Assembly: GCA_002887195.1 (NCBI GenBank)
Contig: PJAB01001313.1
Coordinates: forward strand, 1-15,442
Direction: 5' to 3'
Origin: Chrysochromulina parva
Lineage: Eukaryota > Haptophyta > Prymnesiales > Chrysochromulinaceae
DNA length: 15,442 nucleotides
Shown: positions 886-15,442 of the stretch, piece after piece
How positions within the stretch are numbered: the stretch's first letter is position 1
Layout of the letters: each line of letters begins with the position of its first letter
The notes under the pieces: generated by a model
What the model saw: only the letters and a program-made list of their open reading frames with translations
Databases searched by the model: none
Told to the model about the DNA's origin: nothing
Position numbers and translations under genes: made by a program

Positions 886-962
886 GCGAAGCTTCAGGGA
901 AACTTCAGCGAAGCTTCAGGGAAGCTTCAGCGAAGCTTCAGGGAAACTTCAGCGAAGCTTCA
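886..962. repeat. 22-bp tandem repeat, 3.5 copies, at the tryptophan synthase 3' end
   Basis: The unit GCGAAGCTTCAGGGAAACTT plus CA begins at 886, 908 and 930, with an 11-bp partial copy at 952-962. The middle copy has one A-to-G change. Each unit contains the palindrome AAGCTT. The array overlaps the last codons and stop of the minus-strand gene, so the tandem expansion has reached coding sequence. Confidence 0.93.
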
Positions 963-3294
963 TCGCGACGAGCGCGCCGCACGCAAACGCGGCGGCGAGG
1001 TACACGAGGCTGACGCCGGACGAGCCCTTCGCCTTGCTGCCGTCCATCGCCTTGTAGCCCTCGTCCTTTGTGAGGATCACGTCCGTGTCGATGGTGACAC
1101 CACGGTACTTGGCGACGTGGAGCATATCCTTATCGCCACGGCCGCACAGGTTGACCAGAACGATCTGATCCTTGCGCATGGTCTTGGCGATCTCCATCAC
1201 CTGGTGCAGCGCGTGGCTGGGCTCGAGGGCGGGCAGGATGCCTTCGGCGCGGGAGCAGAATCGCTGCGCCTCGAGCGCCTGCGAGTCGGTCGCATACTTG
1301 TACTCCACCCGCCCGATGGACTTGAGCTGCGCGTGCTGCGGGCCGACTCCGGGATAATCGAGCCCCGCCGAGATCGAGTGCGTCTCCTTAATTTGGCCGT
1401 CGGGAGTCTGCAGAAGGTAGGTGCGGGAGCCGTGGAGCACGCCCACGACGCCATTCGTGAGGGTGGCGGCGTGCTTGTCGGTCTCGGTGCCGTCGGGCAG
1501 CCACGGACCGTGCTCGCCACCCGCCTCGACGCCCACGATCTTCACGTGTCCCTTGGCCGCATCCAGGCTCGGGTGGGTGTCGTTGAGGAAGGCGGAGAAC
1601 ATGCCGATGGCGTTCGAACCGCCTCCGACGCACGCGACGACCACATCAGGCAAACGGCCCGGCCCGACATTGAAGGTCGGGTGGCCGTGCTCTCCCTTGG
1701 TCTGGTTGAGCATCTGCGCACGCGCCTCGTTGCCGATCACCGACTGCAGATCGCGCACGATGTCCGGGAAGGGATGGGGGCCAACGGCCGATCCGATGAT
1801 GTAGTGCGTCGTGCGGATGTTGGTCACCCAATCACGGAGGGCCTCGTTCACAGCGTCCTTGAGCGTCCGCGAGCCCGATTGGACAGGCACTACCTTGGCG
1901 CCCATCTCCGACATGCGGAAGCAGTTGAGCTTCTGCCGCTCGCAATCGACGGCGCCCATGTACACGATGCACTCGAGCCCGAGGAGCGCGCACGCGGCGG
2001 CGGTCGCCACGCCGTGCTGCCCGGCGCCGGTCTCGGCGATAATGCGCTTCTTGCCCAGCTTGATCGCCAGCAGAGCTTGTCCAACGGCGTTGTTGATCTT
2101 ATGAGCGCCCGTGTGAGCGAGCTCCTCGCGCTTCATCCAGATCTGCGCGCCACCCACCAGCTCTGATAACCGCTTCGCATGGTACAGCGGTGTTGGCCCA
2201 CCAATGAACTGCCTGCGGAGCATGGCAAGCTCAGCTTTGAACTCCGGGTCGACCTTCCACTTGTTCCAAGCGGCCTCGAGCTCCTCATGGGCCACCATGA
2301 GCGTCTCGGGGATGAACCGTCCGCCGAAGACCGAGCTACCGAAGTTCCACTTATCCGCATGCTTCTTACGCTCCGCGAGCAACTTGGCGCTCTCGGCCGC
2401 ACGCGCGTACCGGTTGGCTCTGTCCTGGGCGTCGCCCTCGACGCGCTTGAGAGGGCCTCCCGAAAGCTCCCGCACGCACCGGCCGACGGCGGCGATGCCG
2501 CCGTTCTTGAGCTCCTGGACCAGCTTCGAGCCCACCACGCACCCGTCCGCAAACGCGCCAAACTCCTCCACGTGCGCCCGCGTCGTGATGCCAAAGCCGA
2601 CGACGATCGGCAAGTCGTCGCGCTTCGCACCGCGCTTGACGGCGGCATCGCGCAGCGACTCGACGACGCCCTTGCACTCGGCGAGGCGCGCGCGCTTCAC
2701 TTCCGCCTCCTCCTTGTCGCGCATCCCCGTCACCCCGAGCAAGGAGACCACGTACACCATGCCCGGGATCGGGTTGAGACCCGACTCGGCCGCCATCGCA
2801 ATCCGCTCGGGGTCGCTTGTGGGTGAGGCGAGGGGCACGAGGCTGAGGTCGTTGGCCGCGGCGGCCGGCGCCATGATGCGCCACGCCTCCTCGCACGGCA
2901 GGTCCACGATGATGAACCCATCCACGCCCGCTTCCTTGGCAGCCTTGCAAGTCTCCTCGATGCCGGCCGCTAGGAACGAGTTGTAGTAACCCATCATCAG
3001 GACCGGCACGGAGAGGCCCTTGGCGCGGGCGTCCTTGCAATACTTGAGCACGTCCGAGTACTGCACGCCATTCTTCAGCGCCACCACGCTCGCGGCCTCG
3101 ATGACCGAGCCGTCGGCCATCGGGTCGGAGAAGGGCACGCCGAGCTCGATGACATCGCAGCCATTCTTCTCCATCTCAAGCATCGCTGGCACGGTGTCCC
3201 CCAACCGGGGGTAGCCGGCGGTGATGAAGCCCACGAAGGCCGTGCGCTTTGCCGCGCGGCAGGCCGCAAACCGGTCCGCGAGTCGCTGAGACAT
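949..3294 (-). CDS. Bifunctional tryptophan synthase, alpha-beta fusion with C-terminal hydrophobic tail
   Basis: The enzyme catalyses the last two steps of tryptophan synthesis: indole-3-glycerol phosphate is cleaved to indole, which is joined to serine on PLP. The 781-aa frame has a TrpA-like half (about 1-275) with catalytic Glu50 and Asp61 in [14 protein letters not shown] and phosphate-site VVGFGI. A linker (about 278-315) leads to a TrpB-like half (about 316-745) with [14 protein letters not shown]-lysine Lys399 in HTGAHKINN, Glu421 in [13 protein letters not shown] (557-561) and LCGRGDKD. The alpha-then-beta order matches fungal and some algal fusions. The start is the ATG at 3292-3294 (MSQRLADRF aligns with TrpA N-termini); the frame is open upstream but has no earlier ATG. 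Two oddities: Cys717 stands where TrpB normally has Ser, and residues 761-778 form a hydrophobic segment followed by KLR, like a tail anchor. No plastid presequence is visible and the gene is intronless. The enzyme call is very secure; start and targeting are less so. Confidence 0.96.
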
Positions 3295-3565: not shown

Positions 3566-6500
3566 ATGGATTTCTTCGACAAGGCCAAGGCAGCCGCGCA
3601 AGCGAAGATGGAGGAGGCGAAGGTCGCGGCGCAAGCGAAGATGGAGGAGGCGAAGAAGGCGGCCAGGGAGTCCATGGATGCCGGCATGCTCTCCAAGGTG
3701 ACGCAGGCCATGGACAAGATTGAGGGAGGCGGCAGCGTGTCGACACCAGCCAAGGATGGCAAGCTCACGCTCGACTCGCTCTCGCGCGATGAGTTGCTCG
3801 TCGTCGCCAAGCGCGAGAAGGAGATGACGAAGCGGCTCAAAGGGGAGGCTCAGGGTGCGGCCGCGCTGCAGCGGGCGGCCGCCGCTCTCCTCGAGCGCTC
3901 CGGCCGTGCCGTGGAGGCCGCGCTGCCAGCGCACGAGCTCGCGGCGCTCGTCGACGAGCTCCCCTCCCTCTCCGGCGCGGCGGCCGCAGCACCCACCGAG
4001 CTCGCCAGCGCGCGCGAGCGGATCACGGCTCTCGAGTCGGAGGTACACGGGCTGACGCAGCGCGTGCACGCCGAGCGCGAGGAGGCGGCGAGGCAGCTGC
4101 AGGCCGCGCAGGAGGCTGTGCAGCAGCAGCAGCGACAGCTCACCGCCGCCGAGCAGGCCGCGACCACAGCGCGTCAAGAGGCCGCGCTCGCTGCTGAGCG
4201 CATCAAGGAGTTACAGGAGAAGGCTCGGGCGGCGGTCGCGCGCGAGAAGGGCAAGGCGAGTGAGCTCGAGCAGGCCGCGGCGCGCTCGTCCGAGGAGGGC
4301 CGACAGGCGCGGGAGGCGGAGGCGGCGGCCAAGGCGGAGGCGGCGCGCGCGCGGGAGGCCGTGGCGGCGGCCAAGGCGGAGGCGGCGGCCATGGCCGCCG
4401 CGGCGGCGGCAACGGAGTCGTCGGCAGCGACGGCGGCCGGCTCGGTGGCCGAGGCGAGGGCGAAGGCGGCTGCAGACGAGATGGCGAAGGCGGAGGCCGA
4501 GGCCAGGGCTAAGGCGGCCGCGGAGCTAGCGGCCGCCGCCACGGCCGAAGCGCAGGCGAAGGCCATGGCGGCCCTGGCGGCCACCGAGCGCGCCGCCGCC
4601 GCCGAGGCGCAAAGCGCCATGGTGGGCGCCGAGCTCGAGAGCTTGCGCGGCCAGCTTCGTCAACGGACGATGGAGCTCGAGACGGCGCGAGCGGAGGTGG
4701 GCCGGGCGGCGGCCGAGGCGGCGGCGGCGGTGCAGTCGGCGGGGGCGGCGGTCGCGGCCCAAGGTGACGAATCCCAAACGAATCTCAAACGGATCTCAAA
4801 CGAATCTCAAACGAATCTCAAACGTCAGCTCGTGCCAAGGAGGCGCTGCATGCAAGTGCTCACCACGGCGTCCACCCCCCCGCCCCTCCTCACAGGTGAC
4901 GAGAAGCAGCGTCAGCTCGAGGCGCTGCAGCAGCAGCAGCAGCAGCAGAGGCAGCAGAGGCATGAAGAGGCGATCCGATCACTGCAGGCGAGCGCCGCGG
5001 CCGAGCTCCAACTGATTGCGTCCGATTGCGTCTCTGAGTGCATGCTAATGGCCTCCCTCATCAGGCGAGCGCCGCGGCCGAGCTCCAGGCGGTCAAGGAT
5101 GAGGCCTCGCGTGAACGCGAGCTGCTCCAGGCCTCGATGCATGCTAAGTTGCAGAGCGCGCTGGCAGCGAAGGAGGCGGCCGAAGCGGCGGCCGCGGCGG
5201 CGACGGCGACCGCTGTGGCGGCAGCCAAGGCAGCCGCGCAGGCGGAAGTTCAGGAGTTGGCCAAGGCGGCGGCCGAGGCGAAGGGCCAGCTTGCCGCCGC
5301 GCAGCAGCAGCAGCTGGTGGTGCAGCAGCAGCAGCAGCAGCAGCAGAATGACGAGTCGTACCGGAACGAGCAGCTGCAGCGCCAAGCCAGACAGGCAGAG
5401 GAGCAGCTGCTGCTGCAGCGGCAGCAGGCAGAGCAGCAGCTCGAGCAATTACGAGAGCAATTACGCCATCAAGCGGAGGAGCAGCGCGCCCAGTCGGAGG
5501 AGACGGTGGCACGACTCAAGGTGCTTGCATGCATCTGAGTGCGACGGATTGGCTCTGATGGGGTCTGATGGCGTCTGATTGCGTCTCTGAGTGCATGCTG
5601 ATGGCCTCCCTCATCAGGCGAAGGCACGCGAGAGGATCGCCGACTTGGAGACGCGCCTCAAGGCTGCGACCGACGCGTCTGACAAAGGTGCGAAGCCGGG
5701 GGTGGAGATCAAGGCGGAGGCGGAAGCGGAGGCCAAGCTGCAGCTGCAGCAGCTTCAGCTGCAGCTTGCCGCAGCAGAGGCGAAGGCCAATGAAGCGTCC
5801 TCCCGGGCGGCGGCCGCGGAGGCGGCGGTGGCTAAGACAGTCGCGGCCGCGGATGCGTCCGTGCGCTCGGCGGTCGTTTCTGGGAACAACTCCATGCAGT
5901 CCGATGAGGCAAACAGGTGCGACTGATGGCGTCTGATGGCGTCTGATGGCGACTAGTTGCGTCTGATTGCGTCTCTGAGTGCATGCTGATGGCCTCCCTC
6001 ATCAGGGCACGCGCGGCGGCGGAAGAGGTCGCGTTGGCGGCGGCGGAACGCTCGGCCGCCTCGCTCCAGGCAGCCTCTGACGCTCAGGATAAGGCGGAGA
6101 GGGCCGAGGCGGCGGCGGCGGCGGCGACGGCGACGGCGGCGACGGAGGCGGCGGCGGCGGCGGAGCTGCGCCAGGCGATCGCGGTGCTGTCGCAGGAGAA
6201 CGAGAAGTTGAGCGCGAAGGCTGCTAAGGATAAGGAGAAGCTCGCGAACGCGCGGGAGACCGTCAAGGTAGCGAGGGCGGAGGGGAAGGAGCTTCGCGAC
6301 GAGCTCGAGAAGCTCAAGGAGGTGATTGCATGCCTCTGATGGGCTTTGATGGCCTCTGATAGGCCCTGATTGCGACGAGCTTGAGAAGCTCAAGGAGGTG
6401 ATTGCAAGCCTCTGATGGGCTTTGATGGGCCCTGATTGGCTCTGAGCTGCCTCTGAGCGTCTCCGGCCGACCTAAGTTGGACGCCGTGCCGAGCGCATCC

Positions 6501-9500
6501 GACCGCCCTTTGGACTACCCCTGATTGCCTCTGATTGCCTCTAATCACCTCTGATTACCTCTGATTGCCTCTGACCGCCCTTTGGACTGCCCGCAGGCGA
6601 AGGCGAAGCTCGAGGCGGAGCTCCTCGGCACGGCGTCTGTTCGTATCGAGAATGGGCAGCTGCCGCCGCCGCCGGTCGACGCGAGCGAGCATGAGGTGAT
6701 GATGATGACCTCTGATTGGCATTCTCTGCGTGTTTCCTGAGAGTGTCCTCTGTGCTTGCATTCTTGAGTGCCTCGGAGTGCCTCTGATTGCCTCGGAGTG
6801 CCTCTGAGTGCCTTCGAGTGCGCCCCTCATCATTGAGTGCGCCCTCATCAGGTGACCATCGCCTCGCTGAATCAAGAGGTGGTCAGCTCTAAGCTGGCGA
6901 AGGCCGAGGTGGAGGCGGCGCTCGGGACGGCGCGGCGGGAGCTGAGCTCGCTCAAATCTCGGCTCGAGGAGATCGAGGCGCAGGGTTCGTCCACGGCGGC
7001 TGGGGAGGCGAGCGCTGCCTCGATTGCTGCGGCGCTGGCGAAGGCCGAGGCGGCAGCGGCGGCGCAGGCGGCAGCTGAGTCGAAGCTAGCGACGGCGGAG
7101 GCAAAGCTAGCGACGGAGTCGGCGGCGGCGGCGGAGCTGCGCCAGGCGATCGCGGTGCTCTCGCTGGAGAATGAAAAGGTGGGTGCTAAGCCTGTGAAGG
7201 AGAAGCATGAGGGCATCATGCGGATGGCCTCTGAGTGCATGCTGATTGCGTCCCTCATCAGGTGAGTGCCAAGTCTGCGAAGGAGAAGGAGAAGCTCGCC
7301 GAGGCCAAAGAGAAGCAGAAGGCGTTGCAGGCCGAGGCGAAGCAGCTGATGGAGAAGCTCGCCACCTCGGAAGGGAAAGTAACGGCCCTCTCTGCCGAGC
7401 TTGAGACCAAAAAGAAGGCGGAGGAACGTGTGAGTGCGGAGCGGCGGGCGGCGGAGGCTGAGGTGGAGAAGGTCTCGGGGAAGGCCATGTCACTTGAGGC
7501 CAAAGTGGCGGCGGCGCGGGAGGCGGCGGCGCGGGCGGCGGAGGAGGCGGGGGTGAGGGTGGCGGAGATGGAGGCGCGGCTTGCCGAGAATGACAAGCGG
7601 ACCAAGGCTGCCATCGCGGACCAAGCCGCAGCCCGCCTCGAAGCCCAGCAAGCGGTATGCTGCGGCTCTGGACGAGGGCACCATGATTGCCTCGGATGGC
7701 CTCTGATGACCTCCGATGAGGCACCATGATTGCCTCGGAGGGCCCCTAATGACCTTTGATTGCGTCCCTCATCAGGCGACGGCTCTGGAAGAGGGGACTC
7801 GTCGTTCACAGGAGGTGGTTACACGCGCGGAGAAGCGGGCATCGGTCGCGGAGGCCGCCGAGCACGCCACGCGCATCGAGGTCAAGATGCACCAGGTGCA
7901 ATGCCGACAATGCCGAGACGGCGCGTGCGAAGGCCGAGGAGGCTGCATGCACGTGCTCATCACGGCGCCCCTCACCCTCTTCCCCACAGGTACGCGCCGA
8001 CAAAGCCGAGGCGGCGCGTGCGAAGGTCGAGGAGGAGCTGCGGACTTTTCAACGTCCCGACTACCTCGTCGAGCTCCAACATGCCCTCGAGGCTTCAGAG
8101 CAGAGGGCCGTCGATGCGCAGGCGGCGGCGGCGGCGGCGACGGCGGCGGCGGCGGCAGCTGAGCAAGCGAACGCGCAGCTGCGTGCAGCGACACAGAGGG
8201 ACCCATCCACGCCAGGCGGCATCAGCAGCGGAGGACCCACCCCCGGTGTGAGCGTTCACAGCGGAGGACCCACCCCCTTCTCTCCCCTCACGCCCTCCAT
8301 GCTGCGCGCCGCGGGCGCCGAGGCGCTCAACACGGCGCTGGATGAAGAGCGTACCGCGCTGCAGCAGCGGCAGGCAAATCTCGATGAACGAGAGGCGGCA
8401 CAGGCGCGCGAGGCGGCGCAGGCGCGCGCCTCGATCCGGCAGCACTCGCTCGAGCTGGCCAAGATTGGCGCGCGACTCCAATTGAAAGATGAGAGGCTGC
8501 GCACGGGTGTGCGCTCGACTTGATGAGCGATGATTGCCTCTCTGATGACGACTCTAATTGAAAGATGAGAGGCTGCGCACGGGTGTCGACATGAGGGGCC
8601 TCTTGATGAGCGATGATTGCCTCTCTGATGTTGACCTCTGATTGCCTCCCTCATCGGACCGGGCTCCATGGGCCTCTTGATGAGCGATGATTGCCTCTCT
8701 GATGACGACTCCTGATTGCCTCCCTCATCAGGACTCTCGCAAGTGGGTGAGCTACGTCGTCGACTGGCCCTGGCCGAAGCAGAGGCGGCGAAGGACCTCG
8801 CATTGCCCAATGCGGTCGATCAGGAGGCGGCCCACCGCCTGCAAGCGCTCACGATTGAGTACATCCTCGCCCTCGAACTGCAATCTGCCGAGCTCTGCCT
8901 TGCATGCATGTGCCCATCACAACGCGTCGCCCCCCTTCCCCACAGGTACATCCTCGCCCTCGAGCTGCAATCTGCCGAGCTCGCGATGGCGGAGCAGAGC
9001 ATTTGGGCGGCGCACGCGGCTGCGACGGCCACCCTCTCGACTGCCACGTCATCGGATGGCAGCGGGGGTGAGGAAGGGGCGACGGCGTCGGCCGAATCCC
9101 AACGCGCAGCCGAGACGGCTGTGACGGCGGAGTCAGAAGGGGTGAGCGCGGAGGCGACAGGTGCTCACCACGGCGCGACCGGCGCGGCCCTGGTCGCTGA
9201 GGCGGCGAGCACGGCCGGTAAGGGGGCGAGCGCGGACGCCGCGGCCTTGAGAGAAGCCCGCAAGGCCCTCCAGGCGGTGCACGTGGAGCATGCGGCTGAG
9301 CTCGCCGCGAGATCTAAGGAGCTGCTCGCGAGCTCAAAGGAGCTGCTCGCGGTTCGTCACAAGTGTCGCACGATGCTCGTTCACAAGGACGCGGAGCTCG
9401 GGCGCACCCAAAAGGAGCTCAGTACGCTGCATGCTGATTGCGACTGATTGCGACTGATTGCGACTGATTGCTCGGGCGCACCCAAAAGGAGCTCAGCACG

Positions 9501-11122
9501 CTGCCGCGCACGATGCCTCTCTGATGGCTCCGAGTGCATTCTGATTACCTCCCTCATCATTCTGATTACCTCCCTCATCATTCTGATTACCTCCCTCATC
9601 AGTCTGATTACCTCCCCCATCATTCTGATTACCTCCCTCATCAGGCGCGCTGCAACTCGAGCTCGATCAGTGGAAGCGGAGCGCCCGGGGGGGGAGCTAC
9701 CGGCCGCCCCCCCCGCCTCCCCCGCCCACCGACACAAATGCGGCGGGCGTCGTGGTGGGCGTCGCTGCGGCCCTCAGCAGCAGCGGTGGCGGGGGCGGCG
9801 GCAGCGGGGGCGGCGGTGGGGGCGGGGACGCCCCTCTTCCCGAGGGTGGACCGGCGGGCTTACCGACGACCCTGCTTGTCAAGGCTCGTGAACAGGCCAT
9901 CCACTCCGCCGAGGTCGAGAAGTGGAAGAATCGAGCGCAGTCGCTCGAGGCACGCGTCAAGGGCGCGACGGAGGCACGGAAGGCGTGGGGACTGCGCGAG
10001 GTGCGTGATGGCCCCTCTCATTAGCTATCGAGGAGCCATCTCGTTGATGGCCCCTCTCATTAGCTATCGAGGAGCCATCTCGTTGATGGCCCCTCTCATT
10101 AGCTCTCATTAGCTCTCGAGGAGCCTGGCCTTGCACAGCCTAATGACCACGGATGGCCTCTCATTGCGACTGAGTGTCTCCCTCATTGCGACCGAGTGTC
10201 TCCCTCATCAGGCTGAGCTCATTGAGAAGATGGAGGATGCGCAGCGGCAGCTCGCCGCACGTGGACGTCTGGACGATCTCGCGTATCTGCGCAACACGCT
10301 CGTCAAATACTTTGAGCTCGGCCCCGGAGCTTTCGAGGAGGTACACGGATGGCCACTGATTGCGTCCTGATTGCGTCCTGATTGCTTCTCAAGGAGGAGG
10401 TACACGGATGGCCACTGATTGCGCTTCGGATGGCGCCCCTCATCAATCCCTAGGATTGCGCCCCTCATCAGCCCCTCGGATGGCGCCCCTCATCAGTCCC
10501 TCCGATGGCGCCCCTCATCAGGTGTTCCCGTTGCTCGCTGGAGCTCTCGAGCTTTCCCCCGAAGAGGTGACACGCGCGCGCGCCGGCCATCTCGCTCATC
10601 TCGCCGGCGGCTCATCAGGCCTCATCAGCACGGAGACGCTGTGGGGTCTGATCAGCTCCTCCGCTGCCGCGCCCGCAACGGCGCCGGCCAGCGCGGCTGC
10701 TGGAGCGATGGGCGCGGGCGCCGCTCTACCGCCGCCGAAGCTCCTAGGCGCTGAGCTGCCGCCGTCCGCGACGGGCGCCGTGGCGGGCACCATGACGGGC
10801 GGCGCGACGGGCGCCGTGGCGGGCGCCGTGGCGGGCGCCGTGGCCGACGCGGCGGCAGCAGAGGCCGCGGCGACCAAGGAGAAGATGAATCGCATGAAGA
10901 AGCTTCTCGCGGCGGCCGACAAGCGCATCGAGCAGGCGAGTGCCACTGATTGCCACTGATGGCCAATGATGGCCACTGATTGCCTTTGATTGCCGCCTGC
11001 ATCACCTGACGAGCATGCAAATCGAGCAGGCGAGTGCCGAGGTCAAGGAGCGCGACGCGCGCATCCAGGCCCTTGAGGCGAAGCTCCGGCAGGCGGCTGG
11101 GAAGCCAACGCTCGTGGACTGA
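3566..11122 (+). CDS. GRIP-domain golgin, long coiled-coil trans-Golgi tether (16 exons)
   Basis: Reconstructed exons: 3566-4763, 4896-4987, 5065-5520, 5618-5916, 6006-6321, 6597-6695, 6852-7178, 7262-7654, 7776-7895, 7990-8506, 8732-8858, 8946-9421, 9645-10000, 10212-10340, 10522-10935, 11030-11122. They total 5412 nt, 1803 aa, and every junction keeps frame. The ATG in CCGTCATGG starts MDFFDKAK, followed by 11-residue repeats. LSRDELLVVAKREKEM (about 72-87) resembles the short helix of GRIP golgins. Residues about 90-1600 are mostly Ala/Glu/Lys/Gln coiled coil with Gln runs and a Pro/Gly-rich spacer in exon 13. The GRIP domain spans exons 14 and 15 (about 1611-1662): LDDLAYLRNTLVKYF with the conserved Tyr1617, then VFPLLAGALELSPEEV. 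GRIP domains bind Arl1-GTP at the trans-Golgi. About 140 residues follow: an Ala/Gly spacer and a short coil ending KPTLVD. The golgin call is firm for the GRIP region; which golgin this equals is not decidable here. Confidence 0.85.
3590..3655 (+). repeat. 33-bp in-frame repeat coding an 11-residue helical unit
   Basis: Two 33-bp copies (3590-3622, 3623-3655) encode AAAQAKMEEAK and VAAQAKMEEAK; a degenerate third, KAARESMDAGM, follows. Eleven-residue periodicity with Lys/Glu on one side and Ala on the other is typical of amphipathic helices that can lie on membranes. Together with the preceding MDFFDKAK this could be a vesicle- or membrane-contact segment, which is inference. Confidence 0.8.
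4764..4895 (+). mobile_element. Golgin intron 1: family B introner, 132 bp
   Basis: The donor is CCAAG|GTGACGA and the acceptor CCTCCTCACAG|GTGACGA, so GTGACGA (7 bp) is duplicated. After the duplication come five tandem 11-bp units (AATCTCAAACG, 4770-4824), then the family B segment CTGCATGCAAGTGCTCACC to CACAG. Phase 1. Length is a multiple of three and no stop occurs in frame, so retention would insert 44 residues. Confidence 0.85.
4770..4824 (+). repeat. 11-bp tandem array inside golgin intron 1
   Basis: Five copies of AATCTCAAACG, with a C in the first copy and a G in the third. This body is unlike the CTGAT-based arrays of the other introns. Confidence 0.92.
4928..4948 (+). repeat. CAG tract coding Gln7 in golgin exon 2
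   Basis: Seven uninterrupted CAG codons, followed by RQQR. A pure trinucleotide run of this kind is expected to vary in length between strains. Confidence 0.9.
4988..5064 (+). mobile_element. Golgin intron 2: family A introner with GC donor, 77 bp
   Basis: The first 23 bases of the intron (GCGAGCGCCGCGGCCGAGCT plus CCA) recur exactly as the first 23 bases of exon 3. The intron therefore starts CTGCAG|GCGAGC, a GC donor, and ends CCCTCATCAG. The middle is CTGATTGCG-type sequence. Splicing at the duplication boundary keeps frame (phase 0). The long exact duplication marks a young insertion. Confidence 0.88.
5323..5346 (+). repeat. CAG tract coding Gln8 in golgin exon 3
   Basis: Eight CAG codons follow a shorter CAG run and a Leu-Val-Val break, and precede NDESYRNEQ. 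Confidence 0.88.
5521..5617 (+). mobile_element. Golgin intron 3: family A introner, 97 bp
   Basis: Donor CTCAAG|GTGCTTGC, acceptor CCCTCATCAG|GCGAAG, phase 0. TGCATGC follows the donor directly, then CTGATGGCGT-type units. The last 47 bases are identical to those of intron 4. No clear target duplication remains between intron start and exon 4. Confidence 0.83.
5917..6005 (+). mobile_element. Golgin intron 4: family A introner, 89 bp
   Basis: Donor AACAG|GTGCGACTG, acceptor CCCTCATCAG|GGCACG. Exon 4 ends in phase 2 and exon 5 supplies the third base (AG+G, Arg), which fits the downstream frame. The body is TGATGGCGTC repeats. The 47-base tail matches intron 3 exactly. No clear duplication. 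Confidence 0.8.
6322..6596 (+). mobile_element. Golgin intron 5: compound CTGAT-repeat intron, 275 bp
   Basis: Donor AAGGAG|GTGATTGC, acceptor GACTGCCCGCAG|GCGAAG, phase 0. The 3' end is neither family A nor B. The exon end plus donor (from 6296) is copied again from 6372, a 76-bp period with about four mismatches in 65 bases, creating a second potential donor at 6398. GACCGCCCTTTGGACT also occurs twice. The middle is dense in CTGATTGCCT units. Confidence 0.75.
6696..6851 (+). mobile_element. Golgin intron 6: family A introner, 156 bp
   Basis: Donor CATGAG|GTGATGATG, acceptor GCCCTCATCAG|GTGACC, phase 0. Only GTGA is shared between intron start and exon start. The body holds repeated GAGTGCCT and TGATTGCCT units, with an imperfect copy of the 3' end (CCCCTCATCATTGAGTGC) just before the acceptor. 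Confidence 0.78.
7179..7261 (+). mobile_element. Golgin intron 7: family A introner, 83 bp, with diverged 27-bp duplication
   Basis: The intron begins GTGGGTGCTAAGCCTGTGAA and exon 8 begins GTGAGTGCCAAGTCTGCGAA, both followed by GGAGAAG: 27 bases with four mismatches. The acceptor is GTCCCTCATCAG. Phase 0. The divergence marks an older insertion. The exon copy keeps GTGAGT, a stronger donor than the one used. Confidence 0.87.
7655..7775 (+). mobile_element. Golgin intron 8: family A introner, 121 bp, with diverged duplication
   Basis: Donor CAAGCG|GTATGC, acceptor CCCTCATCAG|GCGACGG, phase 0. Just inside the intron, GCTGCGGCTCTGGACGAGGG parallels the exon 9 start GCGACGGCTCTGGAAGAGGG, offset by four bases from the donor. 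GGCACCATGATTGCCTCGGA occurs twice inside. Confidence 0.78.
7896..7989 (+). mobile_element. Golgin intron 9: family B introner, 94 bp, with about 46-bp duplication
   Basis: The first 46 bases parallel the first 45 bases of exon 10 (shared core GGCGCGTGCGAAGG) with several substitutions and one indel. The remaining 48 bases are the family B element: GCTGCATGCACGTGCTCATC to TTCCCCACAG. Phase 0. This intron defines the element boundaries most clearly. Confidence 0.88.
8507..8731 (+). mobile_element. Golgin intron 10: compound family A introner, 225 bp, with dead internal acceptor
   Basis: Donor CACGG|GTGTGCG, acceptor CCCTCATCAG|GACTCTC; exon 10 ends in phase 1 and exon 11 supplies GA. The exon end with donor (8475-8510) is copied at 8551-8586, a 76-bp period with one mismatch. 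Two further tails start CTCTTGATGAGCGATGATTG; the first ends CCCTCATCGG, a lost acceptor, and the second ends CCCTCATCAG. Confidence 0.8.
8859..8945 (+). mobile_element. Golgin intron 11: family B introner, 87 bp, with 37-bp duplication
   Basis: The intron start GTACATCCTCGCCCTCGAAC and 17 further bases recur as the start of exon 12 with one mismatch over 37 bases. The other 50 bases are family B (CTTGCATGCATGTGCCCATC to CCCCACAG). Phase 2. It is a multiple of three and stop-free, so retention would duplicate the segment YILALELQSAEL. Confidence 0.92.
9422..9644 (+). mobile_element. Golgin intron 12: compound family A introner, 223 bp
   Basis: Donor GCTCA|GTACGCTGCA, acceptor CCCTCATCAG|GCGCGCTGCA: a 10-base duplication with two mismatches; phase 1. 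The exon end plus donor (9396-9430) is copied at 9470-9504 with one mismatch, the copy reading GCACGC where the donor reads GTACGC. A TGATTGCGAC array lies between. The 3' half is five tandem 21-bp copies of the acceptor module. Confidence 0.85.
9538..9644 (+). repeat. 21-bp tandem array of the family A acceptor module (intron 12)
   Basis: Five copies of ATTCTGATTACCTCCCTCAT plus C. Copies 1, 2 and 4 end in CATCAT; copies 3 and 5 end in CATCAG. Only copy 5 is followed by G and continues in frame. Confidence 0.92.
10001..10211 (+). mobile_element. Golgin intron 13: family A-type intron, 211 bp
   Basis: Donor CGCGAG|GTGCGTGAT, acceptor CCCTCATCAG|GCTGAG, phase 0. The 5' half is a 39-bp tandem repeat, and the 3' half carries two CATTGCGACTGAGTGTCTCC-like units. 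No target duplication is visible. Confidence 0.8.
10007..10112 (+). repeat. 39-bp tandem repeat in golgin intron 13
   Basis: Units beginning GATGGCCCCTCTCATTAGCT start at 10007, 10046 and 10085. The third copy diverges after CATTAGCT, where CTCATTAGCT is duplicated. Each unit holds CTCATTAG, close to the family A acceptor CTCATCAG. Confidence 0.9.
10341..10521 (+). mobile_element. Golgin intron 14: compound family A introner, 181 bp, inside the GRIP domain
   Basis: Donor GAGGAG|GTACACGG, acceptor CCCTCATCAG|GTGTTC, phase 0. It splits the GRIP domain between FELGPGAFEE and VFPLLAGALEL. The exon end plus donor (10335-10364, 30 bases) is copied exactly at 10394-10423, giving a second potential donor at 10400. 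A 25-bp acceptor array fills the 3' half. Confidence 0.85.
10433..10521 (+). repeat. 25-bp tandem array of the acceptor module (intron 14)
   Basis: GCGCCCCTCATCA starts at 10433, 10458, 10483 and 10508, an exact 25-bp period. Copies 2, 3 and 4 read CATCAG, giving AGs at 10471, 10496 and 10521; only the last is followed by G. Confidence 0.93.
10936..11029 (+). mobile_element. Golgin intron 15: GC-donor intron with both splice sites in the duplicated target, 94 bp
   Basis: ATCGAGCAGGCGAGTGCC (18 bases) is present at both ends. Splicing from CAG|GCGAGT in the first copy to CAG|GCGAGT in the second restores one copy and keeps phase 0. Between them lies ACTGATTGCC-type sequence ending ACGAGCATGCAA, without a family A or B acceptor. 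Confidence 0.82.
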
Positions 11123-11148
11123 GTGAAGCCTACGCTCGTGGACTGAGA
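11101..11148 (+). repeat. 24-bp tandem duplication spanning the golgin stop codon
   Basis: GAAGCCAACGCTCGTGGACT plus GAGT is repeated with two mismatches at 11125-11148. The first copy contains the golgin stop (11120-11122); the second lies in the 3' UTR. Confidence 0.92.
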
Positions 11149-11445
11149 ACACTCGTCGTGGTCGTGTCTTGAGAAGCGTGGCACTTGAGGTCTTGAGTCG
11201 AGTCTTGAGGGGATTGAATTATGTGGTGACTGTGAAGTCTTCTCTGTGCATCACACGAAAGGGATGTTATAAACAAAACAGCCCCAAGAGCTGGCCAAGG
11301 CCGCGGCCGAGCTCTGAGACGTCCCATTCCTAGTGACACTGACAGTACGGGTCCGGGAGGGTGGGGCACGACAACACACGCCGCGAGGCCAGGCCTGACA
11401 TGGGCGCGTGGTACAGCGGAACGTAGGGGCGACGTCGTTTCATCT

Positions 11446-11464
11446 GTTTCCCCACAGGGGAAAC
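11446..11464. other. Perfect 8-bp hairpin with 3-nt loop
   Basis: GTTTCCCC, loop ACA, GGGGAAAC. The left arm and loop also look like a family B acceptor (TTTCCCCACAG|G), so it may be a decayed or cryptic 3' splice site rather than a structural signal. Confidence 0.55.
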
Positions 11465-11642
11465 GTCCGGGAAACGTCCGCGCTACAGTACACCGGATTA
11501 TGGTATGGGTTACATGCAAGTTCAGTCTGTATGCGAGCGTATCTCATGCATATGTGTATGCCCGCCCGCCGGCGCGCCTTGCTCGTCGAGCCTAGCGCGC
11601 TTCCGCCCAATATTGCGTTGCTCGCTCTAGAAGACAACCAAT

Positions 11643-11660
11643 CTAACGCCAAGGCGTTAG
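11643..11660. other. Perfect 8-bp hairpin with 2-nt loop
   Basis: CTAACGCC, AA, GGCGTTAG. It lies about 30 bp before an AATAAA-containing A/T-rich patch, so a role in 3' end formation is possible but unproven. Confidence 0.5.
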
Positions 11661-11688
11661 AACCCACCGTTTTGCGTAAGACAGGAAC

Positions 11689-11715
11689 AATAAAAATTAT
11701 AACAATATAAATATA
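11689..11715 (+). promoter_or_regulatory. A/T-rich patch with AATAAA and TATAAATATA
   Basis: AATAAA at 11689-11694 and TATAAATATA at 11706-11715 stand out in a GC-rich background. The latter lies about 205 bp upstream of the HECT start and could be its TATA box; AATAAA could instead be a polyadenylation signal for the golgin. Neither role can be settled from sequence alone. Confidence 0.4.
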
Positions 11716-11810
11716 CAGGGCACTCATGCAAGCGCGTCCCCGCTCCCCGGGGTGGCACGTCATTACGGTTCGTCGATTCATGCGTGGTTCGTCTACGCGG
11801 ACGGGGGTTA

Positions 11811-11861
11811 TTCACAGCCAATGATTGAAATTCATTAAATCGACACTCTTCACAGCCAATG
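11811..11861 (+). promoter_or_regulatory. Duplicated 13-mer with CCAAT boxes upstream of the HECT gene
   Basis: TTCACAGCCAATG occurs at 11811-11823 and 11849-11861, 38 bp apart. Both contain CCAAT in the + orientation, 59 to 109 bp from the HECT start codon, a plausible place for NF-Y-type elements. An in-frame TAA at 11836-11838 shows this is not coding in the HECT frame. Confidence 0.4.
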
Positions 11862-11919
11862 TTCACACACTCTCAGCAAGGAGAACGTGTGTCTCTTGGA
11901 GTGCATCTTGGAGCAGCTC

Positions 11920-14900
11920 ATGGCCGAGGCGCGCCTAGCGGTCGAGGCCTTGCGCACCTCATCGAATACGGAGCCGGTAGGCGAGGCAGCGGCGGCACGC
12001 CGCGAACCTGGGCGCGACATGTCAGCCTCCCTGCATGGCCAACCTCCGCGCTTTGAGCACATTGGCAAGCTCAGCTACATCAATGCCAATTATCGCGTCA
12101 CATTTTCCGAGGCCTCCGGAAAAGTTAATTTCTGGGTTGCGCCGGCAACGAGCCCGCTCCCAGAGATGCCCGTGCAAGTGTCTTGGAAGAGTTTGACTCA
12201 GGAGGAGTTCTCTCGATTGCCTCTCGCCATCGAGCGATGTGGCAATCGTTGCACAACCCTCGACCTCACGAAGCTCAAGTCCTGCCATCAGATCATCGAC
12301 GATGCTGTTCAGAGCATGGGCCGTCCACGGCCACGCAGGGCCGAGCCGGTGGGCGAGGCGGCGGAGAAGGCGGCGCCGGAGGTCGTGGCGGAGGCGCACG
12401 ATCCGACATCCACGCTGACGGCCGAGGGTGACGGCGACGGCGGGGGCGGCTTCGAAACGCGAGACGTCACGTTCGATCGCTTTCAGCCGAGGCTGCAGCT
12501 GCTCGACGGTGGCTCGCGGCTGGTGGCGACGCGGCACGATGGCAAGCCCCTCTACCCCTCTACCGAGGCAGCGGCGGCGATGGCGGAGGTGGAACGTCTC
12601 GCGGTGGCGGCGGAGGCGGCGCGTCTTGCCGCGGTGGTGGAGGAGGCGCGAGTCATGATGGGGCACCTTGCTGCGGGGGAGATCCAGGAGATCCAGGAGA
12701 TGCTTCACCAGCCCACGCCCGCGCCCACGGCCATCGATTGGCAAGCAGAGATGTTGAAGTGCATCGCTGAAGGCAAGTTGCCAAAGACTGCCAAGAACCT
12801 GATCCCTTACTCGATTGTGCGTTCCACCGCGAAGATGGGCATGAAGGACCCCATCATCTTCGCGGCGACGCCTCAGGCGTTGGGGTCGTTGGGAGTTCCA
12901 TCCACGTTGCCGGACAGGCGGGCGGCACTTCAAATTCTTCGAACGCTGGGCGAATACATATGCCTGGTTGACCCGGCGCACGTACATAAGTTCCAATACC
13001 ACCCCGGGCTGTACATGTCGAAACGTCGTTGCATGTCAGGCTCAAACAAACCGCAGCGCGCCAATTGGTTTGTCATCGCCGAGTCCTCGGTGGAAGCGTT
13101 CAAGGCCGCCGCCACGCACAACAAGCTTGATATGATGACCATTGCGCTCTCTGTGGCCAAGATGGATAAAGCCCGTCGCAGCGCGGAGCCCAAGTCGGAG
13201 CTTGCCGCGGACGAGGAGGTTGACTCTGCTGGGTCGAAGCGCGCCAAGCTCGATGGTGCGTGCGCGAACCTCGATGCGGAGGTGGAGATGCAGGACGTTC
13301 ATGCCGCGGCTCTCAGCGAGGAGATCTCACGGCTCTTGCAGCAGCTCCAAGCGGTTGAGGCGAAGCTGCTCGCCTCCGAAAAGGCGAGGGAAGCGGCGGA
13401 GCTCGGCATCGAGCGAGGGCTCCCCTTCACAGCTGGCGGAGGAGACGTGTTCACAGCTGGCGGAGGAGACGTGTTCACAGCTGGCGGAGGAGACGTGTTC
13501 ACAGCTGGCGGAGGAGACGTGTTCACAGCTGGCGGAGGAGACGTGTTCAAGGAGGTCGGGTCAGCGTCCAGTGCGCCAGACGCTTCCGGCCAGGTCACAA
13601 TGCGACAGCGCGCCTCTCTGATGACCTCTGATGACCTCTGATGACCAATGATGTCCTCGCTCATCAGGTCACAATGCGACAGCGCGCCAACAACGAAGCG
13701 TCGAGCCGTGAGGCAGCGGCGGCGATGGCGAAGGCGGACCGAGGCGCGCACCTTGCCTCCGCCGACATCGAGCCCGGCGCCTTCATGACGCGCTACATGG
13801 CCTTCCGGCAGTATGTCGAGATGATCTTGCAATTCGTGCCGAGCAAGACCGCACGCACCAAGCCGTGGCGACTGCTCGTGCGGCGCGCTGAGCTGGCGCG
13901 CGACGTGATCACGCACTTTGGCGACTTTTCGAAGATGAAGGCATTCCAACCGACCCAGGTCACCTTCATCGATGGCAACGGCAACGAGGAGGAGGGAGAC
14001 GACCTGGGCGGCCTGACCGAGGAGATGTTCTCGAGCTTCTTCAGCGAGGTACTGCTCTAGGACTGATGGTTTCTGATGACCTCTGTTGATGACCTCTGAT
14101 GATGACCTCTGATGGCCTCTCTGATGACCTCTGGTGACCTCTGATGACCGTTGATGGCCTCGCTCATCAGGTACTGCTCCAGGAGGCCGGCCTGTTCGAG
14201 AGCGTGAGGGAAGTGGGCATCGACGGCGGCGGCGGCAGCGGTAACCTCTCGATAGGGCTGCTGCCCTCGCCCACGGCACCAGCTGGCGACCTGATCGCGA
14301 TGGGCAGGGCGATGTGCAAGTGCGTGCTGGCCGATCGGCCGCTTGGGCGCGGCCTCGGCCGCTTTGTTTTCGAGTACCTCGTCGACGCGCACGAGCGGCG
14401 CGTCTTCCACGAGCCCTGCGCAGCGCTGAGGGCCCTCGCCGACTACGACCCGGAGCTGGCGCAGCGCTGGAGCCAGCTGCTCGTGAGTCCGCTCGAGGGC
14501 CTCACGCTCGACCTCTTCGACCCCGAGGCCGAGGACGAGGAGCTGCCTGCCAACCCCGAGGCGATCGGTCGCGCTATAGTGGCTGGCTGCCGGCACAAGC
14601 TTCTCACGTGTCGGTGGGCGGGGCTTGAGGCGCTTCGCCAAGGATTTGCGGACCAGGCCCTCCATGGCTTCGACCTGACGATGCAGCTGGGCGCGCTCTC
14701 GTCCGAGGAGCTGCTGCTCCTCATGCGCGGCAAGACCGAGATGAGCTCCGAGGATCTCCTCGATTGCTTCGAATGGCCACAGCCCAACTCGGCGCGCGCC
14801 GCGCAGGCGGGCTTCGTGTCCATCGGATCGGAGGTGCCGCGCTTCCTCTAATTGCACTTGATTGCACCTCTAATTGCATGCGTGTGCTCACCACGGCGCC

Positions 14901-15211
14901 CCTCCACTTCCCCACAGGTGCCGCGCTTCTTTCGGGAGGTCCTCTTGGACGCGAGTGACGAAACCGCGCTCTGCGCGGAGCAGCGGCTCGCTCTGTTCGA
15001 GTGGTGCACCGCGCTCACCGCGCTGCCGTGCGGCGGGCTCAAGGAGAAGATCAAGCTGAGGCTGTGGGAGGAGGGGGAGGACAACGATCTGCCGAGCGTG
15101 CACACGTGCACGCACGAGGTGCACCTGCCCGCCTACCGCAGCCGCGAGACGCTGCGCGCAAAGCTCTTGATGGCTGTGGAGCACCGCCACGACGGCTTCC
15201 AGATGAAGTGA
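11920..15211 (+). CDS. HECT-type E3 ubiquitin-protein ligase (4 exons)
   Basis: Exons 11920-13593, 13668-14048, 14171-14833 and 14918-15211 total 3012 nt, 1003 aa, all junctions phase 0. HECT ligases take ubiquitin from an E2 onto a cysteine, then pass it to substrate. The HECT domain fills about 629-1003: PWRLLVRRAEL, VTFIDGNGNEEEGDDLGGLTEEMF, FEYLVD, LSSEELLLLMRGKTEM, and the C-lobe VHTCTHEVHLPAY with catalytic Cys970 (codon 15107-15109), ending EHRHDGFQMK. Upstream lies a region I cannot assign (about 41-110, IGKLSYINANYRVTF), an Ala/Glu helix, another unassigned region (about 270-430) rich in aromatic and basic residues, SKRAKLD (439-445) resembling a monopartite nuclear signal, a coiled coil (about 450-500), and FTAGGGDV repeats (503-542). 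The start is the first in-frame ATG after a TAA at 11836; Met34 at 12019 is an alternative. The HECT call is firm; the substrate is unknown. Confidence 0.9.
13426..13545 (+). repeat. 24-bp coding minisatellite, five exact copies (FTAGGGDV)
   Basis: TTCACAGCTGGCGGAGGAGA plus CGTG is repeated five times without a mismatch, encoding FTAGGGDV five times between the coiled coil and the HECT domain. Perfect identity implies recent expansion. The Gly-rich unit is likely a flexible spacer. Confidence 0.96.
13594..13667 (+). mobile_element. HECT intron 1: family A introner, 74 bp, with exact 21-bp duplication
   Basis: GTCACAATGCGACAGCGCGC plus C begins both the intron and exon 2 without mismatch. The rest is TGATGACCTC units ending CGCTCATCAG. 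Phase 0. The exact duplication marks one of the youngest insertions here. Confidence 0.93.
14049..14170 (+). mobile_element. HECT intron 2: family A introner, 122 bp
   Basis: GTACTGCTC begins both intron and exon 3 (9 exact, 14 with one mismatch). The body is an irregular array of TGATGACCTC decamers; the acceptor is CGCTCATCAG. Phase 0. It interrupts the HECT N-lobe just after SFFSE. Confidence 0.92.
14834..14917 (+). mobile_element. HECT intron 3: family B introner, 84 bp
   Basis: GTGCCGCGCTTC (12 exact) begins both intron and exon 4. Then come three ATTGCAC-type units, TTGCATGCGTGTGCTCACC and the acceptor TTCCCCACAG. Phase 0. Retention would hit a TAA almost immediately, removing the HECT C-lobe and its catalytic cysteine. 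Confidence 0.93.
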
Positions 15212-15442
15212 TGTGGTACACCGAGGGATTGACGAACGGAACCCCTTGCCCTTCCGCTCCGCGTGCTTCCTACATACTACGAAAAAAGGTTGGCTTGGGT
15301 GACACATGGGCTGAGAACACTCTGCTTGACCCAAGGGGGAGTGGTCTACTATTTTTCATGTTTATAAGGCCCTAACCCCACACCTGTTTGGGAACTGAAT
15401 GGTTGACCCAAGGGGGAGTGGTCTACTATTTTTCATGTTTAT
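15212..15442. other. 3' flank of the HECT gene
   Basis: No gene is visible in these 231 bases. They hold the 3' UTR and a direct repeat that reaches the window end. A 54-codon tail of an open frame here is only an out-of-frame extension. Confidence 0.6.
15326..15442. repeat. 40-bp direct repeat, 77-bp period, cut by the window end
   Basis: The 40 bases 15326-15365 (starting TTGACCCAAGGGGGAGTGGT) recur exactly at 15403-15442, separated by 37 unique bases. The second copy ends at the last base of the window, so the array or duplication may continue. Confidence 0.93.

What the first reader, a model, noticed from the sequence alone, without database searches (positions are those of the whole stretch)
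4988..14929. Variable-length target duplications (7 to 46 bp) supply the 5' splice site
The intron start repeats the downstream exon start in golgin 1 (7), 2 (23), 7 (27, diverged), 8 (about 20, diverged), 9 (about 46, diverged), 11 (37, one mismatch), 12 (10) and 15 (9 plus 9), and HECT 1 (21), 2 (9) and 3 (12). Described introners of the DNA-transposon type give fixed short duplications, about 8 bp in Micromonas and Aureococcus. This length spread points to another mechanism, such as staggered-break repair, template switching or segmental duplication with filler.
Basis: partly seen in the sequence, partly recalled or inferred. Interest (0 to 1): 0.9.

Follow-up and report, generated by a model that had tools for sequence, protein, structure and literature searches.

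The report
Self-copying introns with target repeats
A small alga related to Chrysochromulina carries very many look-alike introns, a good share of which appear to be born when an older intron is copied into a gene together with a duplicate of about 20 letters of that gene, which then serves as the new intron's start.

Summary
In detail: 10 of the 11 listed introns carry the repeat. Golgin 12 alone is no better than chance; golgin 1's "7" starts a broken stretch of about 34. In 312,864 bases, 39 of 88 introner-like 3' ends have a downstream-exon duplication, against 1.2 per shuffle. Exact duplications (13) run 12-30 bp, mean 20.6, sd 4.9: variable but peaked, unlike a fixed-stagger transposase. 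Inserts have no common left end and no terminal inverted repeats (1 of 24); most end in a 20-nt 3' splice module. Empty sites in homologs hold one copy where they align well. Four pairs of introns with the same body in otherwise dissimilar exons show spread: the copy reaches the donor's exact 3' end, starts at differing points near its 5' end, and joins within 2-19 nt shared by target and donor; in at least two pairs it carries some of the donor's own target duplication. Best reading: template-switching copy of introns into staggered breaks; RNA-templated copying is not excluded. Read descriptions have shorter repeats (introners 3-9 bp, Daphnia 4-12). New variant of a known kind. No RNA data.

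The parts
3566..11121 (+). coiled-coil (golgin-like) gene, 15 introns
11911..15211 (+). HECT-like gene, 3 introns (5' start not determined)
   Evidence: frame open through 3 joins; no Pfam hit for the two exon pieces scanned, but homologs carry PF00632
4764..4895 (+). intron G1, class B 3' end; duplication 4764-4770 / 4896-4902, further colinear blocks 4823-4831 and 4840-4850
4988..5064 (+). intron G2 (GC-AG); duplication 4988-5010 / 5065-5087 (23/23); 72 of 77 bases identical to an intron in contig C81
5521..5617 (+). intron G3, no duplication; body close to G4
5917..6005 (+). intron G4, no duplication
6322..6596 (+). intron G5; contains a copy of exon end + own start at 6373-6410
7179..7261 (+). 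intron G7; duplication 7179-7205 / 7262-7288 (23/27)
7655..7775 (+). intron G8; duplication 7663-7681 / 7780-7798, offset and diverged
7896..7989 (+). intron G9, class B; duplication about 7903-7946 / 7996-8041, gapped
8507..8731 (+). intron G10; copy of exon end + intron start at 8558-8587
8859..8945 (+). intron G11, class B; duplication 8859-8895 / 8946-8982 (36/37)
9422..9644 (+). intron G12; weak 8/10 repeat; copy of exon end + intron start at 9471-9505
10341..10521 (+). intron G14; partial boundary copy at 10394-10412
10936..11029 (+). intron G15 (GC-AG); 18-nt repeat 10927-10944 / 11021-11038 spanning both splice sites
   Evidence: sequence
13594..13667 (+). intron H1; duplication 13594-13614 / 13668-13688 (21/21)
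   Evidence: absent from homolog P0134, 96% identical over the part that aligns
14049..14170 (+). intron H2; duplication 14049-14062 / 14171-14184 (13/14)
   Evidence: empty sites
14834..14917 (+). intron H3, class B; duplication 14834-14845 / 14918-14929 (12/12)
   Evidence: empty sites
5045..5064 (+). example of the 20-nt 3' splice module (branch-point-like A at -17, CATCAG end); here CTAAT in place of CTGAT
   Evidence: A at -17 in 66 of 83 class A ends

Best explanation
These are introns that multiply by copying an existing intron, up to its exact 3' end, into a new exon site. SHOWN: most inserts end with the same 3' splice module; their left ends vary; where a duplication is found the target is duplicated over about 12-37 bp, and the intron-side copy starts at the GT/GC used as 5' splice site; empty homologous sites that align well hold one copy; in four traced pairs the copy runs to the donor's 3' end, begins between 0 and about 20 nt from its 5' end, and joins inside 2-19 nt shared by target and donor; donor target sequence can travel along. 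INFERRED: a staggered break or stalled fork leaves an overhang of about 20 nt; its end pairs by (micro)homology with an intron, elsewhere or in the same gene; the polymerase copies to the intron's end and returns to the target at an AG|G, so the overhang is present twice. Returns just upstream of GT/GC splice cleanly and survive selection, which would fix the left edge and the 3' end. I think DNA templates the most likely.
For: Length spread and peak: 13 exact duplications, 12-30, mean 20.6. No shared left end, terminal inverted repeat in 1 of 24. Four pairs whose flanking exons are no more alike than those of other introns (at least 11 of 88 other exon starts score as well): (1) G2 / C81, 72 of 77 bases identical, exons sharing GCGCCGCGGCCGAGC at the join, junction 18-mer exactly twice in 45 Mb; (2) C798 -> C1, the insert starts inside the donor's target-derived GTCCGATCTC; (3) C235 -> C1634, 46 of 47 insert bases, join in GCGATCGC, the insert begins with a 20-nt piece of the C235 exon that meets the intron motif at CTCTGA; (4) C2006 -> C235, 112 of 113 bases, carrying C2006's duplicated exon (18/21 to its own exon) where the C235 exon has none. 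Local donors: nearest relative of a body in the same locus and strand for 10 of 60 against 3.05 shuffled, p 0.0012, mostly reciprocal pairs; same-strand matches >=15 nt to 700-nt flanks in 13 of 37 inserts against 1.4 expected, mostly to neighbouring introns; reverse 0. Copies spanning the exon-intron boundary in G5, G10, G12, G14, which excised intron RNA cannot supply. Only 5 RVT_1 matches, 29.7-34.2 bits against a cut-off of 29.6 (a lower bound). Empty sites with one copy.
Against: Microhomology at the left join is not clearly enriched over all introns once arrays and pair 1 are set aside: mean 2.65 against 2.07 plus 0.33 (8-mer anchor, n 17), 2.57 against 1.14 plus 0.33 (10-mer, n 14). Mean within-locus body similarity is not above between-locus (p 0.37). 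Local matches are nearly all same-strand, which suits sense RNA templates as well. In pairs 1 and 4 the whole or nearly whole intron moved, and pair 4's own target repeat is only GTGCGC, so plain whole-intron transposition fits it. Inserts cluster at 47-72 nt (15 of 19), as if a unit moved. 49 of 88 ends show no duplication at the threshold. Of 16 insert pieces blasted, 3 gave a pair that I followed; two more (L024, golgin 7) matched many places in their repeat-rich part, not followed.
Confidence: 0.45

Rival explanations
1. RNA-templated version: excised or unspliced intron RNA is reverse-transcribed at a nicked target (as in target-primed reverse transcription), or reverse-spliced and copied back, giving an exact 3' end, a variable 5' start and, in the first case, a variable target duplication.
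For: Copies end exactly at the intron's 3' end; 112 of 113 bases of a whole intron moved in pair 4; exact duplications 12-30 bp resemble LINE-type duplications (recalled); local matches are same-strand.
Against: Boundary-spanning copies and a 20-nt exon piece in one insert need unspliced RNA or template jumps; reverse splicing alone gives no target duplication; no tail seen; RVT_1 matches few and near the cut-off (5, best E 3.8e-7); local-donor excess.
Confidence: 0.33
2. Plain tandem duplication of exon with later intronisation of random filler.
For: Direct repeats and tandem stacks of whole units exist.
Against: The material between the copies is not random: a 34-nt intron tail recurs at 59 places with up to 2 mismatches, control 0, and whole introns recur in dissimilar exons.
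Confidence: 0.07
3. Introner of the DNA-transposon type with a fixed-stagger transposase.
For: Thousands of motif copies: 2,997 places for one 20-mer with up to 2 mismatches, array copies included; the 5' splice site is taken from the duplication, as in some described families (PMC9860276).
Against: Duplication length not fixed; no terminal inverted repeats, no fixed left end; donor target sequence travels with copies.
Confidence: 0.03
4. Chance or low-complexity coiled-coil coding sequence.
For: Many exons are Ala/Glu-rich repeats.
Against: Mispaired controls: 0 of 306, 1.2 per shuffle against 39.
Confidence: 0.01

Closest known systems
Introners (Gozashti et al. 2022, PMC9860276; seen: abstract, first part of Results, methods on low-complexity filtering and TSDs)
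   Same: Many-copy introns inserted into exons; some families carry the 3' splice site and take the 5' one from the target duplication; found in aquatic protists, Chrysochromulina sp. among them.
   Different: Previously characterised families are said to have 3-9 bp duplications, and their Chrysochromulina example 4 bp with the 5' site carried. Here about 20 bp and variable, with the 3' site carried. Families of low complexity were filtered out by hand there, which might drop these repeat-rich bodies.
New introns of Daphnia pulex from staggered double-strand breaks (PMC4202315; passages seen)
   Same: Direct repeats of variable length at opposite intron ends; internal repeats read as repeated breaks.
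   Different: 33 such repeats of 4-12 bp among 90 introns; here 12-37 bp (24 cases) and about 3,000 motif places of one body family.
Tandem genomic duplication and intron transposition models (review PMC3443670, passages seen)
   Same: Duplicated AGGT-like sequence gives a splice site; a copied intron moves to a new place.
   Different: Here a duplicated target and a copied intron seem to occur in one event.
Direct repeats near intron borders (PMC11782384, abstract and passages seen)
   Same: Repeats of 4-30 bp, mean 11.4, read as break-repair scars.
   Different: 213 introns of many kinds; in what I saw, no shared insert and no donor traced.
Amoebophrya introners (PMC7789003, passages seen)
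   Same: Invading introns with direct repeats that vary in length, composition and position.
   Different: 3-5 nt direct repeats with 8-20 nt inverted repeats; defined among non-canonical introns.

Membership tests
Introner (broad sense) | many sequence-similar introns at unrelated exon sites | tested here: met
   59 places for a 34-mer, control 0; same intron in dissimilar exons
Introner (broad sense) | similarity extends close to both splice sites | tested here: inconclusive
   to the 3' site in all four pairs; to the 5' site only in whole copies; elsewhere the 5' part is target sequence
Introner (broad sense) | spliced as introns in mRNA | not testable with these tools
   only frame evidence: 18 joins leave both window genes open; 11 of 16 clear cases among 27 introns checked, window ones included, chance one third (the automatic check did not pick the gene-model frame for G2 and G11)
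DNA-transposon introner | fixed-length target duplication | tested here: not met
   exact cases 12-30, sd 4.9, n 13
DNA-transposon introner | terminal inverted repeats | tested here: not met
   1 of 24 inserts with >=5 nt
Staggered-break repair introns (Daphnia type) | variable-length direct repeats at opposite ends | tested here: met
Staggered-break repair introns (Daphnia type) | presence/absence alleles in populations | not testable with these tools
   only homologs and paralogs: P0134 lacks H1; C707 and C813 lack H2 and H3
LINE/SINE-type retroposition | RNA intermediate | not testable with these tools
   no RNA data; 5 RVT_1 matches near the cut-off
Plain tandem exon duplication | intron consists only of duplicated exon | tested here: not met
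   insert shared across loci

The most novel reading that the evidence does not exclude
Introns that propagate themselves by 3'-anchored, homology-guided copying into staggered breaks, so that the piece of each target duplicated at birth travels on in the daughter introns as a barcode; the family tree of intron births could then be read directly from sequence.
Probability: 0.5. Interest if true: 0.88.

Novelty: new variant of a known kind. Interest (0 to 1): 0.77.

Why it matters
How new introns arise in bulk is a long-standing question; in the papers I saw, the traced cases are mostly transposons with short duplications or single accidents. Here a small algal genome holds very many look-alike introns that appear to spread by copying introns into breaks, and the duplicated target carried by a copy can name its parent locus. 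That makes donor, recipient, direction and junction homology testable for single intron births, and suggests that the 3' splice module can be the spreading unit, with the target supplying the 5' splice site.

Tried and rejected
General microhomology: a first count looked strong, but much of the excess came from tandem arrays and from the G2/C81 pair; without them it is weak, so I do not claim it. Pieces templated from within 90 nt were not generally enriched; within 700 nt, neighbouring introns included, they are (its motif mask is incomplete and the window is richer in introns than the control loci). Empty-site paralogs by DNA: joined flanks of 14 of the 20 introns built were sent and no empty site was seen, with 40 of 402 candidates scored; one candidate, C2010, appears from its coordinates to have the intron too. 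At H1 the distant HECT homologs do not align well (P0121 has 5 extra residues there, others gaps), so they say nothing; only P0134 does, and its N-terminal part differs, so it may be another gene or a chimeric contig. Viral and prokaryote collections: no match to the 20-mer. The third protein search found no near-identical golgin, best 58% over 40%. Frame check outside the window is noisy: 5 of 16 clear cases do not fit, among them L035 and L042. Rows dropped before the counts: duplications with more than one aligned block, inserts under 40 nt, starts other than GT/GC, array-internal units; array-terminal units (5 loci) were kept and dropped only for the microhomology test. The sample is not random: 19 regions of 5-10 kb spread over contigs and 38 loci of about 3 kb picked by 3'-end patterns, some overlapping; repeated contexts were counted once. 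Whether G000 is C. tobinii itself was not settled: TrpAB matches that species at 100% over 70% of the query, but contig sizes differ from the published assembly. Literature: in the listings and the passages read I saw no description of this family; most papers were seen only as listings.
Full report
WHAT IT IS IN. The window is one contig (C1313) of a 45.07 Mb genome in 2,199 contigs. A fused tryptophan synthase on the minus strand (952-3291) matches Chrysochromulina tobinii at 100% over 70% of the query (P0045), so the host is a haptophyte very close to that species; whether it is that species was not settled (contig sizes differ from the published assembly). Two plus-strand genes carry the introns: a coiled-coil gene with 15 and a HECT-like gene with 3. 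Splicing at the proposed sites leaves both frames open without an internal stop. No RNA evidence was available.

THE OBSERVATION. I compared the start of each intron with the start of the next exon. Exact runs of 7 or more occur in 7 of 18 introns and in 0 of 306 mispaired controls. G7, G8 and G9 add diverged or gapped repeats. G1's 7 is followed by colinear blocks of 9 and 11 nt, so the original repeat was about 34 nt and was probably split later by an 11-bp repeat array. G12 (8 of 10) is not separable from chance. Seven introns (G3, G4, G5, G6, G10, G13, G14) show no such repeat.

BEYOND THE WINDOW. A 20-base pattern of the intron end occurs 1,549 + 1,448 times in the genome with up to two mismatches, against 0 for the reversed control; array copies are counted. 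In 312,864 bases I took 88 introner-like 3' ends: 83 with a CATCAG end and at least two repeat motifs, 5 of a second kind ending CACAG. Of these 39 have a gapped downstream-exon repeat of score 10 or more, 33 at terminal ends and 6 inside arrays; shuffling the exon partners gives 1.2. Among 24 single-block cases starting with GT (21) or GC (3), 13 are exact, of length 12, 14, 16, 19, 19, 20, 20, 21, 23, 23, 25, 26 and 30: mean 20.6, sd 4.9. So the length varies but is peaked near 20; repeats under about 10 nt would be missed. The exon base before the 5' splice site is G in 21 of 24 and the one before it A in 15 of 24; exons ending in TGA, TCG, GCA or CTG also occur, so the left edge of the duplication sits at the splice site itself.

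ANATOMY OF THE INSERT. Intron minus duplication is 47-72 nt in 15 of 19 non-array cases. In class A the last 20 nt are conserved: a YTRAY-like A at exactly -17 in 66 of 83 ends, then CATCAG, which was part of the selection. Inserts start in many ways and only 1 of 24 has a terminal inverted repeat of 5 nt or more. Whole units (duplication plus insert) also stand in tandem stacks, for example 57 bp in L042 and 69 bp in L030.

EMPTY SITES. Two intronless paralogs in the same genome (C707, 57% and C813, 52% identical) align across H2 and H3 without a gap at the join and hold one copy, 4 of 4 comparisons; small gaps lie elsewhere in three of the four alignments or more. P0134, 96% identical over the quarter of the query it covers, reads straight through H1 with one copy and ends four residues past the conserved VL at H2; its N-terminal part differs. 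More distant homologs are gapless at H2 but do not align well at H1. A 58% homolog (P0136, 40% coverage) reads through G10, G11, G13, G14 and G15 without extra residues; at G12 the alignment has gaps. I saw no empty site with two copies.

WHO COPIED WHOM. (1) G2 and an intron in C81 agree in 72 of 77 bases, in exons that share GCGCCGCGGCCGAGC at the join; the junction 18-mer occurs exactly at these two places. The C81 exon lacks the TCCA that both introns have; the G2 exon has it. Either direction puts the join inside 15 or 19 shared bases. (2) An intron in C1 (L001) begins its insert with TCCGATCTCC..., found at 100% over 33 nt in two stacked units of C798; C798's own exon has GTCCGATCTC, the C1 exon does not, so C798 looks like the donor and its target piece travelled; the join shares about 2 nt. 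(3) The insert of an intron in C235 (L049, end 2182) recurs in C1634, 46 of 47 bases; both have GCGATCGC before it, and the insert starts with a 20-nt piece of the C235 exon just upstream which joins the intron motif at CTCTGA; so C235 probably gave to C1634. (4) A 113-nt intron in C235 (end 1953) equals one in C2006 but for one base. Its middle part repeats C2006's exon (18 of 21) and nothing that I could align in the C235 exon, so C2006 is the likely donor and its duplicated target moved along; the C235 exon shares only GTGCGC with the intron start. Flanking exons of the pairs are no more alike than those of other introns: 88, 85, 20 (22 after cutting the shared start) and 11 of 88 other exon starts score at least as well. 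So in pairs 1 and 4 the whole or nearly whole intron moved; in pairs 2 and 3 it lacks the donor's first few to about 20 bases. Of 16 insert pieces blasted, three gave the pairs 2-4; pair 1 came from the all-against-all comparison.

LOCAL COPYING. The nearest relative of an intron body lies in the same locus and strand for 10 of 60 against 3.05 by shuffling (p 0.0012), largely reciprocal pairs, although mean similarity within loci is not higher (p 0.37). Same-strand matches of 15 nt or more between insert and 700-nt flanks: 13 of 37, expected 1.4, most to neighbouring introns; reverse strand 0. G5, G10, G12 and G14 contain copies of their own exon end plus intron start.

HOW IT MOST LIKELY WORKS. 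Shown: a shared 3' module, variable left end, variable target duplication, one-copy empty sites where testable, donor target pieces carried along in at least two pairs, joins inside shared sequence in the traced pairs. Inferred: a break or fork with an overhang near 20 nt is extended on an intron by pairing of a few bases, copied to the intron's end, and closed back at AG|G of the target. Selection for clean splicing would then explain why the left edge is at GT/GC and the right end at CAG. DNA templating is my choice (0.45); RNA templating (0.33), including whole-intron transposition, predicts much the same anatomy and is not excluded. A fixed-stagger transposase is not met by length, ends or carried target pieces. 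Microhomology over all introns is only weakly above expectation and is not claimed.

COMPARISON. Introners characterised earlier are said to have 3-9 bp duplications and, in the Chrysochromulina example shown, 4 bp with the 5' site carried by the element (PMC9860276; abstract, first part of Results and two method sections seen). That survey filtered low-complexity families. Daphnia new introns have 4-12 bp repeats read as staggered-break repair (PMC4202315, passages). The present family works like the latter at the target and like the former in number, with copying from intron to intron traced in four pairs. I saw no description of it in the searches named under Tried and rejected.

Noticed in passing
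class A intron ends in all loci; e.g. window 5045-5064: The branch-point-like CTGAT and the end CATCAG can pair into a small hairpin (CUGAUGGCCUCCCUCAUCAG folds at -6.1 kcal/mol, but two common variants only at -1.3 and -1.9), which would place branch point and 3' splice site side by side.
   Followed up: partly
L042, L030, L005, L033, L037: Tandem stacks of whole duplication+insert units (57-79 bp), each with its own splice-like ends; possible stepwise splicing.
   Followed up: no
window 6322-6596: Intron G5 holds a 14-nt inverted copy of its downstream exon (GACGCCGTGCCGAG), a snap-back-like piece.
   Followed up: no
window 4764-4895, 7896-7989, 8859-8945, 14834-14917: A second, non-repetitive intron body (around GCATGCATGTGCTCACCACGGCG, ending CACAG) with the same kind of duplication; that 23-mer occurs 93 times exactly in the genome.
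   Followed up: partly
window 13426-13549: 24-bp unit repeated about five times, 100% identical, within the coding exon of the HECT-like gene.
   Followed up: no
P0136: The 58% golgin homolog seems to have an in-frame intron of its own (VCTSLLILPSS...PPLQ) where the window has none (read by eye).
   Followed up: no
window 15320-15442: A stretch of about 40 bp (TTGACCCAAGGGGGAGTGGTCTACTATTTTTCATGTTTAT) stands twice at the contig end.
   Followed up: no
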